Shown here piece by piece: positions 7,623-60,336 of a stretch of 64,000 bases of DNA. The notes beneath the pieces are model-generated. The model did not search any database, was not told where the DNA came from, and saw only the letters and a list, made by a program, of their open reading frames with translations. Each line of letters opens with the position of its first letter. The first letter of the stretch is position 1. The stretch lies in contig JAJYFL010000001.1 of NCBI GenBank assembly GCA_021790935.1, forward strand, positions 124,001 to 188,000, in the 5' to 3' direction. The stretch comes from a bacterium. Lineage in GTDB: Bacteria; Vulcanimicrobiota; Vulcanimicrobiia; Vulcanimicrobiales; Vulcanimicrobiaceae. The position numbers and the translations under genes are program-made.

Positions 7623-9113
7623 ATGGCTGAGTTCACTGAGTACGAGCGCTTCGACGCAATCGGGTTATCGCAGCTCGTTCGGGATCGGCAGGTTACGGCC
7701 TCGGAACTCCTCGAGGCGGCGATCCAGCGCGCGGAGACGGTGAATCCCCGGCTCAATGGGCTGGTCGCCCGGCGGTATGAAGCCGCGCGTCAGGACGCCG
7801 CCTCCGGTCTGCCCGAAGGGCCCTTTCAAGGCGTGCCGTTTCTCGTTAAAGATCTGGGGCCGGAGCTCGCCGGGACGCCCATGACGATGGGAAGCCGGTA
7901 CTTCCGTGCCTACGTCCCAGCCGCCGACCATCCGTTCGTCAAAAGCGTGAAGGCTGCCGGCCTCAACATCTTCGGCAAGACGAACACGCCCGAGTTCGGA
8001 TCGATGCCCTACACCGAGCCGGCGTTGTTCGGGCCATGCCGCAATCCATGGGATACCGCGCGCACGCCGGGTGGTTCGAGCGGCGGAAGCGCCGCATTGG
8101 TCGCGGCCGGGGTGGTCCCGATGGCGCACGCGAGCGATACGGGCGGATCGATCCGCATCCCAGCGAGTTGCGTCGGGCTCTTCGGCATGAAGCCGACCCG
8201 GGCTCGGATGCCGACGTCGGGCGGTACGATTGGCGACGCGAACGTGGACCTTTGCGTCTCGCGGAGCGTGCGCGATAGCGCGCTCTTGCTCGACTGCGTG
8301 GCGCAGGAGCGCGGCGCGCTCTATCAGGCCCCGCCCACCGATGGCAGCTTCCTCGCATGCACGAAGCGCGATCCCGGGCGGTTGCGGGTTGCGGTCGTGC
8401 GCGGGCCGATGCTTGGGCACGGGGTCGATCCCGAGGTCAGCAAGGCCCTCGATGCCGCTGCGGCGCTCTGCGAGTCGCTCGGCCACGATGTGGCCATCGA
8501 CGAGCCGCAAGGCATCGATTATTCGGCCATGTCGTATGCGCTGCTCATGCTGTTCGCAAGCCAAATCGGCTGGCATCTCGGCGCCGGAAACCCGCTCGCC
8601 GGAAAGCCGCTGCGAAGCGGCGATCTCGAACCGGCAACCCTCGCCTTGCTGATGATTGCCCGCCTTCTTAGCGCCGACGAGCTGACCACGGCCGTTGCGA
8701 ATCAGCGTTTGCTCGCAGGCGTATTCGATGCGTTCATGCAGCGATACGACGTGCTCCTCATGCCGACGTTGGCCGCTCCACCGGTTCGAATCGGCGAACT
8801 TGCGCTCACGAAAAAGGAAACCATGCAGATCGCCGTTCTCGCGCGGCTGCGCTCGAGGGCGTTGATTCGCAAAGCCGCGCGCGATATCGCATCGCGGATG
8901 TTCGACTGGTTGCCGTATACGCCCGTGTTCAATCTCACCGGCCAACCGGCGATGACGCTTCCACTCCATACGAGCGCCGGTGGACTACCGGTCGGCGTAC
9001 AGTTTGCCGCTCGTCTGGGCGAGGAGGGGCGGCTTTTCTCGCTCGCCGCGCAGATCGAATCGGCCGCCCCGTGGGCCGGCCGCCGCCCGCCGAGTGGTGC
9101 GGCGCTCGGCTGA
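7623..9113 (+). CDS. Amidase-signature family amidase
   Basis: This 496-residue cytoplasmic hydrolase of the amidase-signature superfamily has a Ser-cisSer-Lys catalytic triad: Lys76 in FLVKDLG, the cis-Ser in [11 protein letters not shown] (152/153) and nucleophile Ser176 in [11 protein letters not shown]. The C-terminal [13 protein letters not shown] and [10 protein letters not shown] motifs are also typical. It is not a convincing GatA, because no gatC or gatB is nearby. The ATG at 7623 follows a strong GGGAGGAA site. The gene is monocistronic on the strand opposite to rsmG and mnmG, and its substrate is unknown. Confidence 0.9.
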
Positions 9114-54611: not shown

Positions 54612-54931
54612 CGCGGTACCCGATCTTGGTCACTGGCGCCGATCGGGTCGCCCTCCGCGGGCGCTCGGCTTTGCTGTGTGCGGTTGCCAACGGGAATCGA
54701 ATCTGATTCCGATGATCCCGACGAGTAACGCGAAGTGCTAAAGAGTGTTGTGGTGTCAGGTCTTTCGGCCATTCGGTGCCCCGGCCGTTACCGCGCAAAG
54801 CTAGCGGGTGGCATCGGGTCCGTGCCACATCGGTGCCACGGAACGTTGAAAACGACCGGTTACCCGTCCGGCTTGATCCGGGAAGTTCGTGCAAGCACGG
54901 CGCCAAGCCGTGCGCAGCTAGAGTCGGGTGT
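54612..54931. other. Gene-free stretch at the edge of the accessory island
   Basis: No convincing gene was found in these 320 bases. They contain a short hairpin (GGAATC and GATTCC, 54693-54710) and a short direct repeat GTGCCAC-TCGGTGCCAC around 54820-54840. This is the junction between the high-GC chromosomal backbone and the lower-GC restriction-modification cluster, so a former insertion boundary may lie here, but no att-like duplication was identified. Confidence 0.5.
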
Positions 54932-56074
54932 CTAAGCGGTGCCCCATGGCTTTCCGTTTGAGTTGTTGACACAAAGAGATCGATAGTATGCGTACCCTGC
55001 GTCAGCTGGCGCCACGATCGTCAACTCGTAGCTGGCGAGAGGGTTTGAAACTCTAGAGAATACCACCAGATCTCCGCCTCCCGGGTTTGCGAGGTCAAGC
55101 GTAGCGTGGTTCATTCTGAGGCGGTTCTCTGTCCTAACTGGATATATCCAGAGGCGGTAATCGTGGAGTTGTGGACCAAGTGGATCATTCAAGATCACGT
55201 TCACCTTGGTATCGGGATACATTCTGGCGCCCTGCGTTGGCGCAGGGAAAAATGGCATCGCGTCGTTTGGTATCAGCACCTCCGGGGTGCCGCGCACCCC
55301 GCTACGGTGGGAGGAGTCGAAAGCCGACAGTTCCATCACAAATATCGTCGCCGCTGTCGAAGGGAGCGGATTCTGCTGAATAACCGATGTCGCAGACCTC
55401 CTCGTTACTCTCGGAGGCGGCGCCGGTAGCACCATTGGCGGAAACAGTGGGTTGGCACCAGTACGCGAACGCTTGCGGCGTGGTGCGCCGTTCGGATCAG
55501 TCGACGCATTTTCACGTAGTACCCGCGACTCAGTTTCGAGCCGACGTAGCAACGCGAGATCAAGAGGAAAGGCGTTGCTTCCCGGTGTTAAAAGGCCGTC
55601 TATATCCAACTGAAAGGCGGAGAACTCCGCCGCCTCGTGAGCCACCGAGAAGTCGAACGCCAATTCTACGCCATACTCTATGTTGCGATACAGACCATCC
55701 CGCGTCACGTTTGCGCTTCCGACGATTACGAGGCCATCGGTAGCGCCTGAGAACACGAACATCTTAAGGTGAACAATCGGCCCTATATCCGAGTGCACGA
55801 CCGTCGAGGTGGCAGATAGTCTTATCAGCTCCTCCAGCGCATCAGCCGAGGTGATGTGATCGTCGATACCAACGGCTCCGGAAACCACTCCTCCTCGATT
55901 CAAGAGCGCTTCGATTCCGGGCATAAGTCGGTCCAAGCCAGATAATCGCATGTATGCTGTTGCGAACTTGAAGACTGAAAAGCGCGTATCGAAAAGCGCG
56001 CCGCTAACATGATCACCAAATCGCTTGATGGGATTACCCCCGAGGACCCACTGCGAAATGGTTTGATGCCTCAC
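54932..56074 (-). CDS. Phospholipase-D-fold restriction endonuclease (BfiI-like)
   Basis: The 380-residue product has a PLD nuclease domain (about 1-175) with one HxK...N...E active site: His102, Lys104, Asn122 and Glu133 (VHLKMFVFSG, VGSANVTRDG, NIEYG). From memory, the metal-independent enzyme BfiI uses His105, Lys107, Asn125 and Glu136, the same spacing. A Pro/Arg-rich linker (about 195-235) leads to a strand-rich C-terminal domain (HDYRLWIYPV ... GDLVVFSRVSN ... YELTIV) like the B3-fold DNA-recognition domain of BfiI. The GTG start overlaps the upstream methyltransferase stop by one base. GC is lower than in the backbone. Confidence 0.8.
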   Translation of the reverse strand: MRHQTISQWVLGGNPIKRFGDHVSGALFDTRFSVFKFATAYMRLSGLDRLMPGIEALLNRGGVVSGAVGIDDHITSADALEELIRLSATSTVVHSDIGPIVHLKMFVFSGATDGLVIVGSANVTRDGLYRNIEYGVELAFDFSVAHEAAEFSAFQLDIDGLLTPGSNAFPLDLALLRRLETESRVLRENASTDPNGAPRRKRSRTGANPLFPPMVLPAPPPRVTRRSATSVIQQNPLPSTAATIFVMELSAFDSSHRSGVRGTPEVLIPNDAMPFFPAPTQGARMYPDTKVNVILNDPLGPQLHDYRLWIYPVRTENRLRMNHATLDLANPGGGDLVVFSRVSNPLASYELTIVAPADAGYAYYRSLCVNNSNGKPWGTA

Positions 56075-57621
56075 TAGGAGGTCCTTAACAAGACAAGCGA
56101 TTCTGCGCGAATTCCATTGGCTGCATGCAGTCCGAATCGCTGATAAGCATCCAGAGCCAGTATGTCGACAAGCGAATAGCCAACGCTTTCGCCAATTATA
56201 GCCAGCAACTCTGGTGTATCTATCGTCCGGCGCCTACCGCCGATTGTCGTCTCGTTCTTGCCGACAACCAGTGCGAGGTGCCCGCCTGTGCGAAGGCATG
56301 ATCTCGCAGTGGTCATGAAGGCTTGCATATCGAGAAAATAGCGAAACAATAGCGACGGTAGGTTTCGGCGCCGAAATCCATCATTCTTATCCAGGCCACG
56401 CAAAAGACGACGACACAAGCGTAGAGGCTTATCAGGCAGAACGGTACTGTTGCCATCGATCTGCGCCTCAAACCCTCGTCGCTCACGCACCGTGATATCG
56501 CGGCTGCCAATCAGCTCCCGTTCAAGCCGTGCTAGAGCATCCGACGAAACAAGACCGAGCGCCGAAAGGCTGAGGCGTTGAGTATCAATATAAGGGAGGG
56601 CCATCGCGTACGGCGGGCTCGTAATTATCGCATCAACAGGGCCAGCTACGCGCCTGAGTGAGTCACGGGCATCGAGTAAGCCTATGCCTGTCTTCGCTTT
56701 TACCTCGTTCTTCAGAACGGACTCGACCGCGGCGATTTCACCGATCTTAGCTCCCGCTGCTTCAATAAAGCGCGCTATAAGCGGCGCATTAGTGATTTCT
56801 TGCTTTCGACGCCGGATTCGGAGATCTGCTTCATCCTGCTGCGAAACTGAGCGTAAGTGGTCGCTCAGCAGAACGCGGAAGATACGCTCGATCGCAGTAT
56901 CGCCTACTCTCCCGATTACATGCTCTATCATTTCCAGTTGCAATAGCACTGACGGCGGGAACCATCTGGACAAGTAGTCGTCGCCTCGCAGGTTGCCACG
57001 CAGGCAAAAGGTGCGCCCAATCTGCTGCTCGGTGGTTCGGTCGATTGACCTGTCCGAGGCGCCCAAATGGCGCCATGGCAGCAACGCCTCAGCAACAAAA
57101 CGAAACGTCGACGTTAGCGAGGATGCAGGCATGCGCAGGGCGCCGGTCTTCGCAGTCGCGATCTCAACAGCCATTGGATTGATATCAGCGCCGTAGGCGT
57201 CCCAACCGTTATGGATCGCCTCTACGAGCACGGTGCCGCTTCCGCAAAATGGGTCAAGTACTGTACTCCCAGGGCGCAGCCCGATTATGTTTCCAATGGC
57301 GCGGACGACCTGAGGATTAAATTTTCCCTTATATTCGTGGAGACCGTGCGATGAATAGCGGGTGCGCTGACGGCTCTTTACGCGCGCACTAGATGCGCGC
57401 TCGAGTTGGGTTTGGATCGGCGTTATCTGGCGGTGTCTATTTGTCACAAACTCGCAGTAAGTAGCGCGGCTTCCCAAGTGGTCCCAACGTGGAAAGCCCG
57501 GCGTGGAGATCTTTCCGATCGCGAGCTCCGTCTTCCGACGAGCGAGCGCCGCAATCTCCATCTGAGCAAGTGTGACTTCGTATGGGAACAAGTTGTATGA
57601 CGACAGATGAAAATCAATCAC
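56074..57621 (-). CDS. DNA methyltransferase (m4C/m6A type), second of a pair
   Basis: The 515-residue product has SAM-binding motif I DPFCGSGT (123-130) and the amino-methyltransferase catalytic motif TSPPYA (SPPYA 335-339), preceded by a motif X-like HEYKGKFNPQVVRAIG. The approximately 200 residues between the motifs probably include target recognition. It shares the HxY...F, DPFCGSGT and TSPPY arrangement with the upstream methyltransferase, so the two are paralogous. The GTG start overlaps the upstream stop as GTGA. It most likely protects one strand of the site cut by the PLD nuclease. Low GC suggests transfer. Confidence 0.85.
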   Translation of the reverse strand: MIDFHLSSYNLFPYEVTLAQMEIAALARRKTELAIGKISTPGFPRWDHLGSRATYCEFVTNRHRQITPIQTQLERASSARVKSRQRTRYSSHGLHEYKGKFNPQVVRAIGNIIGLRPGSTVLDPFCGSGTVLVEAIHNGWDAYGADINPMAVEIATAKTGALRMPASSLTSTFRFVAEALLPWRHLGASDRSIDRTTEQQIGRTFCLRGNLRGDDYLSRWFPPSVLLQLEMIEHVIGRVGDTAIERIFRVLLSDHLRSVSQQDEADLRIRRRKQEITNAPLIARFIEAAGAKIGEIAAVESVLKNEVKAKTGIGLLDARDSLRRVAGPVDAIITSPPYAMALPYIDTQRLSLSALGLVSSDALARLERELIGSRDITVRERRGFEAQIDGNSTVLPDKPLRLCRRLLRGLDKNDGFRRRNLPSLLFRYFLDMQAFMTTARSCLRTGGHLALVVGKNETTIGGRRRTIDTPELLAIIGESVGYSLVDILALDAYQRFGLHAANGIRAESLVLLRTS

Positions 57622-58754
57622 GACGCCACACCTCGCTCAAAAACTAACACGTGCTCGCTATTTCGCGGACTGACGCGCGGATTAAAGGCTTTTCTTGTGT
57701 AGGGAATACGCCTTAGTGTCGCCTCCTTTAATCGGTAGCCATGCCCTGCGGCTGCGCGACCCATCAAAGCTCGATTATCCACGGTGACCCCGTGAATAAT
57801 GGAATCCGAAATCACAAAACACAAGGGAGCCTCGGGCGTGGTGACAGCCTTAAGCAAGCCGAACAAGTGGTGCATCTGACGTTCGAAGTCTTCCGCGGTT
57901 TGATGATTTTTTTTAAAATAGTGTGGGCGGGCACCGATCTCTCGTTCACGGACAAAGAGTGGATCGTAGCCGAGCCAGTACATCCGATACTTATGATAGA
58001 GCCAGTATTCGTAGGCATTTGGATAAGGCGGCGAGGTGATTACAAGGTCGAATGGGCCACGAAGATCCGACGGTTCGATACCGAGGATGTCACGATTTAG
58101 GATCATCGCCTCTGGTCCTGCTGGAATACGGCCCGCAAAAAGCGAGGAGCAAAGGTCGGCTACGCTGCGTCTGAACTGAGCAATGACGTCATCGTACGCG
58201 ATGCTCTTCTCAATAGCCGCATACCGCGTATCACTTTCTTGCCGAGAAACCCGTACGATGATGCGCGAAAGCGCGCACATCAACGCCTCGCGCTCGTTTA
58301 GGCTTTCACAAAGTTCTATGTGAAGAACGATATCCCGAAGCGCCTGCTGCACCTCCAGGCCAAACCAATGATCGACTTTCGGAATTGCGCTAACTAGATC
58401 GCGACTAACGACCTGCGAAGCGATAGGCATGCCTGCGTGCGCCCGGATGTTGTGCAACTCATCATCGCCGTATGATCGAGTCTTGACGCGACTTATCAGA
58501 CAAGCAATCGGGTGAAGGTCAATCCCCGTAGCGCTGCATCCTGCGCGCAGAGCACTGGTTAGCGTTGTACCCGATCCACAGAACGGATCAAGCACATTCA
58601 TGCCAGGCTTACTAAATTGACCTAACAATGAATCCGGAATAAGGGAAATAAAGCGCGCAGGATAGGGGTGGATAGTAGCCAGCGGCTCAACACCCTCTGA
58701 TGCGCCATCCCAATCGATTTCTGCAAAAGCGAGATTCGGCTGCGAACGAGTCAA
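57618..58754 (-). CDS. DNA methyltransferase (m4C/m6A type), first of a pair
   Basis: The 378-residue product has a motif X-like HPYPARFISLIPDSLL, motif I DPFCGSGTT from residue 56, and catalytic motif TSPPYPNAYEYW (SPPYP 241-245), followed by FVISDSIIHG. It belongs to the exocyclic-amine DNA methyltransferases. The TTG start has a strong AGGAGG site eight bases upstream, so this is probably the first gene of the three-gene operon. Two methyltransferases plus one endonuclease are expected for an asymmetric (type IIS-like) recognition site, where each strand needs its own enzyme. Confidence 0.87.
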   Translation of the reverse strand: MTRSQPNLAFAEIDWDGASEGVEPLATIHPYPARFISLIPDSLLGQFSKPGMNVLDPFCGSGTTLTSALRAGCSATGIDLHPIACLISRVKTRSYGDDELHNIRAHAGMPIASQVVSRDLVSAIPKVDHWFGLEVQQALRDIVLHIELCESLNEREALMCALSRIIVRVSRQESDTRYAAIEKSIAYDDVIAQFRRSVADLCSSLFAGRIPAGPEAMILNRDILGIEPSDLRGPFDLVITSPPYPNAYEYWLYHKYRMYWLGYDPLFVREREIGARPHYFKKNHQTAEDFERQMHHLFGLLKAVTTPEAPLCFVISDSIIHGVTVDNRALMGRAAAGHGYRLKEATLRRIPYTRKAFNPRVSPRNSEHVLVFERGVAS

Positions 58755-59404
58755 ACTATTAGCCTCCTACGTGTATGCACCAAGGCACGCTAATCCCAAA
58801 GCCGTAGCAAAGCGCGCGAGTTCGGGGGTTGCTTAGCACAAGTCATCGACTCCGCGGGAAAGGCTGACGGACGAGCGCATCGCCATGGAGCGCCTAAGAG
58901 CCTAGTTCAGTGATATGCCAGCAGTCTGGCACTATGATTCTAGACTCATCGGTTCGATGGACAACAAGGAATCTCGCTTTCCGCACCAAGGTCTCGGGCA
59001 AAAGAGCCCGCGATGCGGCATTGTAGTTCTTCTTCGCTTCTCTCGACAGGCTATCCCCGACAATCCCCAAGATTTTGGGTACGAACGACCGTTCGCCACT
59101 AGACCTTCCGGTGCCCTCATGAGACTAGAAAGCAACGGCGCGCCAATGCCGTCTCCCTTATCAGCGGGTGCCAGCCGTCTTAGTGGCCCGCGGGTTCCAA
59201 TTATTGAGAACCGACGGGTATCGCTGGGCCTCCTAGCAGGGCCGCTAGCGGCAAGGAGATTCATCAGATGGGGCCGCACCCGGGCCTCGGCAACCTCCAC
59301 TCCTCGCAAACTTCGGGGGCTCATCGTCGAGGCAGATTGGGGGCAGCTTTAGCCGAACGAGCAATGGTCTACGTAGACCCCGTGGCGACGAAGGGGCATT
59401 CGCC
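58755..59404. other. Gene-poor stretch upstream of the restriction-modification operon
   Basis: Open frames of 130-145 codons exist on both strands, but they overlap each other, lack ribosome sites and have no recognisable domains, so none is annotated. The operon promoter must lie in the first hundred bases. The rest may be decayed mobile-element sequence; no terminal repeats or transposase motifs could be identified. Confidence 0.5.
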
Positions 59405-59948
59405 TTGACCATTGGCGCGGTTGCCGGCGTCGCGATAGATCGCGAGCGTGCCGTTTGGCTCGCGGAGCGGTCTGCTGAAGCGGTGCCGACCGTCTCGTCC
59501 CGGTGGGGCGTTGGGCAACGCAGACGGGCACGCGCGTTTCTCAATGAGGCGTTAGCGTTTACGGCCTCCGACGTTTCGCGCGCTGCGGAACTCGGCATTG
59601 CGGCGGCGGACGATTTCGAGTGTCGTGGGATTCTATTGGCGCGCTGGGAGGCTTGCGGCGCATCTCTATTTTCTGACGGGGCACGTTGGTTATCGAACGC
59701 GCGCTCGCCGATTGCTCGAACTCTACAGCGATCGGCCGCTCGCGTTTTCGGAGGACAAGCCCGAGAGTATGCCGCCTCGACAGAGGGAGGTGGTGGAGCG
59801 AGTGCTCGCCGGAGGCGGGTCCGAGACATCGCAACGGCGGCGGGTCTGAGTGAAAGCGCCGTACTCAAGACGATCATGCGTCTCTAAGCGTCTTGGCGTC
59901 CACGGCCGCGCCGAACTGTTGGCATTAATGCTTCAGCGTGCGGGCTGA
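59405..59948 (+). pseudogene. LuxR-type regulator remnant with several frameshifts
   Basis: The C-terminal part of a LuxR-family regulator can be read only by switching frames. First comes RARAFLNEALAF and AAELGIAAADDFECRG in one frame, then GYRTRARRLLELYSDRPLAFSED and MPPRQREVVERVLAG in a second. DIATAAGLSESAVLKTIMRL follows in the first frame, and KRLGVHGRAELLALMLQRAG in the second, to the stop at 59946-59948. At least three small indels, near 59652, 59815 and 59885, are needed. Loss of the last join breaks the DNA-binding helix-turn-helix, so no functional regulator is made. The N-terminal part is missing. Confidence 0.75.
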
Positions 59949-60336
59949 GCAGGCCGAAGGACTGCGACCCCGCCGCGTGTCGTTCTGGCAAGCTGAACGG
60001 GGCCGCAGCCTCGCGACCCGCTCTCTGGTTGCGCGTTTGTACGCACACACACACTCACCGGCTTGCGTCGTGAAAAATCAAAAATCGGTGCGGTCCTTGC
60101 GTATCAGCCATCTGATCGCCGAAAAGCGGCCGTCAAGTATGGGGTCAGACGCTGTTGAAGACGGCTTCTAGCGGCATGATGTACGAAGATTGGTTGTTGA
60201 CAGACGACCCGTTTGATTTGGGACGCGCCGCGCGCGGTCGAACCGAGTGCCTCGCCCCGTAGGCTCTTGGCCGGATAACGCCAGATCGCCGGCGAGCGTA
60301 GGAACGTAGCGGGCTACTCAAGAAGCGCTGGCCACC
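59949..60336. other. Gene-free stretch before the MoxR operon
   Basis: No gene is supported in these 388 bases. An ACACACAC run lies near 60045 and a TTGACA hexamer near 60196, without a matching -10 at normal spacing. The MoxR-operon promoter should be in the last part. It forms the right edge of the gene-poor, accessory stretch. Confidence 0.45.

What the first reader, a model, noticed from the sequence alone, without database searches (positions are those of the whole stretch)
54932..58754. Horizontally acquired BfiI-like restriction-modification cassette with two paralogous methyltransferases
A lower-GC, overlapping three-gene operon encodes two related methyltransferases with N-terminal DPFCGSGT and distal TSPPY motifs, and a PLD-fold nuclease. 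The nuclease's His-Lys-Asn-Glu spacing (2, 18, 11) equals that of BfiI as I recall it, and it has a B3-like C-terminal half. BfiI-type enzymes are rare: metal-independent and using one active site for both strands. A divergent member in this lineage may have a new asymmetric target. The alternative, a DNA-defence nuclease that is not a simple restriction enzyme, is also open.
Basis: partly seen in the sequence, partly recalled or inferred. Interest (0 to 1): 0.75.

Follow-up and report, generated by a model that had tools for sequence, protein, structure and literature searches.

The report
Divergent BfiI-type restriction-modification cassette
This is a three-gene bacterial defence cassette, two DNA-marking enzymes plus a DNA-cutting enzyme of the rare metal-independent BfiI type, inserted as foreign DNA; its marking enzymes are clear cousins of those in known BfiI-type cassettes, but its cutting enzyme belongs to a different, barely described branch.

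Summary
Window 58754→54932 (minus strand) is an overlapping M1-M2-R operon at 55% GC in a 65% GC window. It lies in a roughly 5.5 kb insert that a same-genus genome lacks. M1 and M2 are 40-47% identical to the methyltransferases of plasmid and chromosomal cassettes whose nuclease is a true BfiI orthologue (E 4e-150 to solved BfiI), and they fall in the same well-supported clades. The nuclease carries the PLD residues H102/K104/N122/E133 and a C-terminal B3-like domain, supported by a profile search and by a modest AlphaFold/Foldseek model whose top PDB match is BfiI. So the 'BfiI-type restriction-modification' reading is largely right.

Two corrections. The 2/18/11 spacing is not BfiI-specific: 19 of 20 non-BfiI PLD relatives share it. 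The nuclease is also not a BfiI orthologue: it scores 82 bits end to end against a different PLD-B3 branch (usually convergent with a related MTase pair) and only 14 bits against BfiI. The pair is BfiI-clade while the nuclease is of another type. Whether it was replaced or diverged fast is unresolved. Target, methylation type, metal independence and cleavage are inferred, not shown.

The parts
57618..58754 (-). M1: DNA methyltransferase (378 aa, TTG start), motif I DPFCGSGT at 58589-58566, motif IV TSPPY at 58037-58023; predicted m4C
   Evidence: PDLC03364 MTase_II E 1.5e-95; 44% to L015_M1; BfiI-cassette clade 100/100
56074..57621 (-). M2: second, paralogous DNA methyltransferase (515 aa, GTG start), motif I at 57255-57232, motif IV at 56622-56608; predicted m4C
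   Evidence: PDLC03377 MTase_II E 1.4e-87; 41-42% to L015/L016 M2; BfiI-cassette clade 98/94
54932..56074 (-). R: PLD-B3 nuclease, predicted restriction endonuclease (380 aa, GTG start)
   Evidence: profile of its family: BfiI 2c1l is the top PDB hit, 8e-14, both domains; 82 bits to the L004-type profile over residues 17-372; Foldseek top hit BfiI, E 7e-14
55676..55771 (-). PLD active-site segment H102-x-K104 ... N122 ... E133
   Evidence: BfiI residues from PMC4081073
54935..55348 (-). C-terminal B3-like DNA-binding domain of R (residues 243-380)
   Evidence: matches the CTD profile built without it, 36-39 bits; reversed sequence none; family CTD to BfiI CTD 3zi5, E 9.6e-4; 3zi5 E 2.3e-6; plant B3 VAL1/RAV1 E ~2e-3
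54621..60103 (.). Maximum extent of the inserted DNA; flanks resume at 91-94% identity (short blocks 89%) in a same-genus genome that lacks the cassette

Best explanation
A horizontally acquired Type IIS-like restriction-modification system of the BfiI kind. M1 and M2 each methylate one strand of an asymmetric target, which protects the host. R is a dimeric PLD nuclease: two N-terminal domains build one metal-independent active site, and the C-terminal B3-like domains recognise the unmethylated target so that DNA is cut a fixed distance away. Shown here: gene content and order, homology of both MTases to those of true BfiI cassettes, homology of R to BfiI in both domains at family-profile level, intact catalytic residues, and recent insertion. 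Inferred: m4C chemistry, one strand per MTase, dimerisation, metal independence, asymmetric target and shifted cleavage. R is not a BfiI orthologue. It belongs to a wider PLD-B3 branch that serves related twin-MTase cassettes, so the window and one Chloroflexota cassette (L022) join BfiI-clade MTases to a non-BfiI nuclease.
For: Same order and overlap (M1-M2-PLD) in the Roseibium L015 and Methylobacterium L016 plasmid cassettes, where the nuclease matches BfiI at E 4.3e-150. MTase identities are 40-48% within this clade, with starred clade support and the same best PADLOC MTase models, PDLC03364 and PDLC03377, as a true BfiI cassette. Homologous MTase pairs with PLD-B3 nucleases occur in Chloroflexota, Planctomycetota, Bacillota and Pseudomonadota. 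R family profile: BfiI top hit in the PDB with both domains. Fold: BfiI top match of 350,542 chains. Empty site in a same-genus genome, and flanking genes ~630 bp apart in several family members. No Z1-type N-protein in the host genome, so an ATP-coupled CglI/NgoAVII arrangement is unlikely.
Against: Pairwise, R is barely recognisable as BfiI (phmmer E 0.96; BfiI HMM 14 bits). The AlphaFold model is modest (pLDDT 69, pTM 0.49; two of nine alignment rows were BfiI orthologues), and a fold of the C-terminal domain alone without an alignment failed. L020 carries the MTase pair with no PLD nuclease nearby, so the pair can exist without one. No methylation or cleavage data.
Confidence: 0.85

Rival explanations
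1. The nuclease is a direct, fast-diverged descendant of the BfiI nuclease, not a replacement; the cassette is simply an old BfiI system.
For: Co-directional M1-M2-R order as in BfiI cassettes; AU tests do not reject a clade of window R (with or without L022 R) and the BfiI nucleases, p 0.11-0.36.
Against: Inside BfiI cassettes R is conserved as well as or better than the MTases (54-70% vs 44-56%), and in L004-type cassettes about equally, whereas window vs BfiI cassettes shows MTases at 40-47% and no detectable R alignment. Window R scores 82 bits end to end to the L004-type profile against 14 bits (PLD part only) to the BfiI profile.
Confidence: 0.35
2. ATP-dependent PLD-B3 restriction of the CglI/NgoAVII kind, needing a separate helicase subunit.
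For: Same R domain plan (PLD + B3); NgoAVII is a profile and fold hit.
Against: No helicase in the insert; no Z1-domain protein (PF10593) in the 98.8%-complete host genome, with C. glutamicum ringing as control; those systems carry one m5C MTase, not a pair with TSPPY motifs (PMC4267653).
Confidence: 0.05
3. A defence nuclease that is not a site-specific restriction enzyme (DrmC/DISARM-like or Type IV), with unrelated MTases beside it.
For: Weak PLD-level matches to DrmC, DpdK and SauUSI-type proteins.
Against: Matches cover the PLD part only; the same MTase pair plus PLD-B3 nuclease recurs across phyla; no DISARM partners are in the cassette.
Confidence: 0.06
4. A decayed or inactive cassette kept only for methylation.
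For: TTG/GTG starts; a related MTase pair (L020) has no nuclease; no clear promoter above background.
Against: All three ORFs are intact, with all catalytic motifs and couplings preserved.
Confidence: 0.08

Closest known systems
BfiI (and isoschizomer BmrI) restriction-modification system, ACTGGG 5/4
   Same: Twin MTases homologous at 40-47% to those of true BfiI cassettes; same gene order and overlap in L015/L016; PLD N-terminal and B3-like C-terminal domains; H/K/N/E catalytic set.
   Different: The nuclease is not an orthologue (no blastp hit; BfiI HMM only 14 bits); a different PLD-B3 branch with a low-confidence, probably disordered linker (about residues 191-240); target unknown.
Rhizobium anhuiense pRA_T24_3-type cassettes (L004, L026, L032, L212): uncharacterised twin-MTase + PLD cassettes
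   Same: Nuclease homologous end to end (24-27% by blastp, 82-bit profile match); MTase pair homologous at 33-38%.
   Different: Nuclease gene convergent to the MTases; M1 of L004 has an N-terminal MerR-type HTH; MTases in a separate clade.
CglI / NgoAVII (GCCGC), ATP-dependent PLD-B3 systems
   Same: PLD + B3 R protein.
   Different: One m5C MTase and a DEAD/Z1 ATPase subunit required (PMC4267653); neither is present here.
SauUSI Type IV ATP-dependent endonuclease
   Same: PLD nuclease domain (fold hit).
   Different: Large helicase fusion acting on modified DNA; no MTase pair.

Membership tests
BfiI-type RM system | PLD-superfamily N-terminal nuclease with HxK...N...E | tested here: met
   (spacing 2/18/11, not family-specific)
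BfiI-type RM system | C-terminal B3-like DNA-recognition domain | tested here: met
   caveat: modest model, two BfiI orthologues in its alignment
BfiI-type RM system | Two MTases of the M1/M2 families found with the BfiI nuclease | tested here: met
BfiI-type RM system | Nuclease orthologous to BfiI (as in L015, L016, L021, L023, L190) | tested here: not met
   no significant pairwise hit; AU test leaves descent open
BfiI-type RM system | Recognition of ACTGGG and cut at +5/+4 | not testable with these tools
   needs methylome and cleavage assay
BfiI-type RM system | Metal-independent cleavage through one dimeric active site | not testable with these tools
   inferred from the PLD fold only
Type IIS restriction-modification (separate strand-specific MTases) | Two MTases each modifying one strand of an asymmetric site | tested here: inconclusive
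   two paralogous MTases present; strand assignment untested
CglI/NgoAVII system | DEAD/Z1 ATPase (N) subunit | tested here: not met
   none in genome; control positive
DISARM | DrmA/DrmB partners and a full DrmC match | tested here: not met
   only weak PLD-level DrmC matches, no DrmA/DrmB in the cassette

The most novel reading that the evidence does not exclude
Nuclease exchange under a conserved methyltransferase pair. In the BfiI MTase clade the restriction gene has been swapped between two non-orthologous PLD-B3 types (BfiI-type in L015, L016, L021, L023, L024/L190; the other in the window and L022). Either the two different B3 domains recognise the same target, or the exchange carried a change of specificity that the MTases had to follow.
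Probability: 0.4. Interest if true: 0.55.

Novelty: new variant of a known kind. Interest (0 to 1): 0.4.

Why it matters
Only BfiI/BmrI and the ATP-dependent CglI/NgoAVII group represent well-characterised PLD-B3 restriction enzymes in the papers read here. This cassette and its kin define a second, sequence-divergent nuclease branch that works with BfiI-clade methyltransferases and that the PADLOC restriction-enzyme models do not recognise. It makes a concrete question testable: do two different B3 nucleases paired with homologous MTases read the same site, or did specificity move with the nuclease? It may also supply new metal-independent Type IIS enzymes.

Tried and rejected
Catalytic spacing as a BfiI marker: rejected, since nearly all non-BfiI PLD relatives share it. 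A viral-contig scan with M1 gave only weak, mostly domain-level MTase hits and none of them was followed. The nuclease trees do not place window R (long branches; AU p 0.11-0.36), so a swap is not claimed as shown. Folding the C-terminal domain alone as a single sequence failed (pLDDT 31). Pairwise identity over forced global alignments of R is not informative (shuffled sequences reach similar values); profile scores were used instead. No tRNA, Rfam family, integrase-like repeat pair or clear promoter marks the insert. DISARM, Type IV and CglI-like readings: see rivals. The MTase target could not be inferred from sequence.

Full report
WHAT IS THERE. Three intact minus-strand genes overlap at 58754-54932: M1 (378 aa), M2 (515 aa) and R (380 aa). 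M1 ends and M2 starts in GTGA, M2 ends and R starts in TAGTG, and M1 is preceded by AGGAGG, so the three are probably translated together. The cassette has 54.6% GC, while segments of the same length elsewhere in the window average 65.7% with a minimum of 60.5%.

INSERTION. In several genomes of the same family the winged-helix gene on the left (PF13601) and the membrane-protein-like gene on the right lie about 630 bp apart. In the window they are 5.7 kb apart. In a same-genus genome whose flanks are 91-94% identical, the cassette is absent and about 1 kb of other DNA stands there. The insert is at most 54621-60103. M1 and R have no counterpart in any of the other 148 genomes searched of the phylum, apart from two weak PLD-only matches to R. 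No tRNA, Rfam element or clear flanking repeats were found. The acquisition is therefore recent and local, not part of an evident defence island.

METHYLTRANSFERASES. Both carry motif I (DPFCGSGT) before motif IV (TSPPY) and match Pfam N6_N4_Mtase. TSPPY suggests N4-cytosine methylation (established motif knowledge, not tested here). They are distant paralogues (27%, E ~4e-12). In plasmids the best relatives sit in Roseibium (L015) and Methylobacterium (L016) as the same overlapping or abutting M1-M2-PLD operon. The nuclease there is a true BfiI orthologue: E 4.3e-150 over the full length of the solved BfiI structure 2c1l. A genome scan with M1 added further cassettes from several phyla, and genome searches added more. 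In a joint tree window M1 and M2 each fall in the clade of BfiI-nuclease cassettes (M1 100/100, M2 98/94), apart from the Rhizobium-type (L004) and fused-MTase (L031, L050, L209) clades. The PADLOC models that fit best are the same for window and BfiI-cassette MTases.

NUCLEASE. R has H102, K104, N122 and E133. The spacing equals BfiI's (residue numbers from PMC4081073), but nearly all non-BfiI PLD relatives share it. Pairwise, R hits BfiI only at E 0.96. A profile of R with seven cassette nucleases finds BfiI as the top PDB sequence (8e-14) with both PLD and C-terminal parts, and the isolated BfiI recognition domain 3zi5 at 9.6e-4. Window R's C-terminal part matches the family C-terminal profile built without it at 36-39 bits, and its reversed sequence does not. 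An AlphaFold model from a nine-row alignment (pLDDT 69, pTM 0.49) has BfiI as first Foldseek match (E 7e-14), then SauUSI, NgoAVII and the BfiI recognition domain (2.3e-6), with plant B3 domains VAL1 and RAV1 near 2e-3. Two of the nine rows were BfiI orthologues, which may favour that fold. The B3-like reading is well supported but rests on prediction.

WHICH BRANCH. Against a profile of Rhizobium-type nucleases R scores 82 bits over residues 17-372; against a profile of BfiI orthologues it scores 14 bits, PLD part only. BfiI orthologues match PADLOC's REase_II model PDLC03425, whereas window R, L004 R and L022 R match no REase_II model. Within BfiI cassettes the nuclease is conserved as well as or better than the MTases (54-70% vs 44-56%), and in Rhizobium-type cassettes about equally, but between window and BfiI cassettes the MTases keep 40-47% while R gives no alignment. 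The Dehalococcoidia cassette L022, sister to window M2 (95/85), also has a non-BfiI nuclease, though in convergent orientation. Replacement of the nuclease under a conserved MTase pair is a plausible reading. The nuclease trees do not settle it: window R sits on a long branch and a clade with BfiI is not rejected (AU p 0.11-0.36).

MECHANISM. Most likely M1 and M2 protect the two strands of an asymmetric site, and R, a dimer with one metal-independent PLD active site and two B3-like readers, cuts beside unprotected copies, as BfiI does (PMC4081073). The steps from homology to chemistry are inferred. The ATP-dependent CglI/NgoAVII variant needs a DEAD/Z1 partner (PMC4267653). None is in the genome, and the control genome rang.

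VERDICT. A real, horizontally acquired, divergent BfiI-type restriction-modification cassette: BfiI-clade methyltransferases with a nuclease of another PLD-B3 branch. PLD-type restriction enzymes are known to be more numerous than BfiI alone (PMC4081073), so the kind is known; the combination and the nuclease branch are the new part. REBASE could not be searched and may already list relatives as putative.

Noticed in passing
L020:5953-8589: Oscillibacter genome carries the M1-M2 pair with no PLD nuclease next to it; the following ORF (8582-9028) looks PIN-like by eye, not tested.
   Followed up: partly
L021:5989-9720 and L212:6081-10452 (same genome, G150): One Anaerolineae genome carries both a true BfiI cassette and a Rhizobium-type twin-MTase/PLD cassette, suggesting that the two types have different targets.
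   Followed up: partly
L031:5758-8691, L050:5857-8676, L209:4287-7043: M1 and M2 fused into one protein of about 920-980 aa, each with a convergent PLD-B3 nuclease gene.
   Followed up: partly
L004:8789-10183: The M1 homologue in the Rhizobium anhuiense plasmid cassette has an N-terminal MerR-type helix-turn-helix (Pfam 6.6e-9), a possible built-in autoregulator.
   Followed up: no
L005, L006, L008, L012, L013: PLD relatives of R next to single N-6 or Eco57I-type methylases on plasmids, suggesting that the PLD nuclease module pairs with several kinds of MTase.
   Followed up: no
window 58755-60103: Between M1 and the right flank lies DNA of 61% GC with no convincing gene; its overlapping ORFs give no Pfam family above cut-off.
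   Followed up: partly
L233:100-1460: At the same site the same-genus genome carries two tandem, similar short stretches of other DNA, so the locus may be a small insertion hot spot.
   Followed up: no
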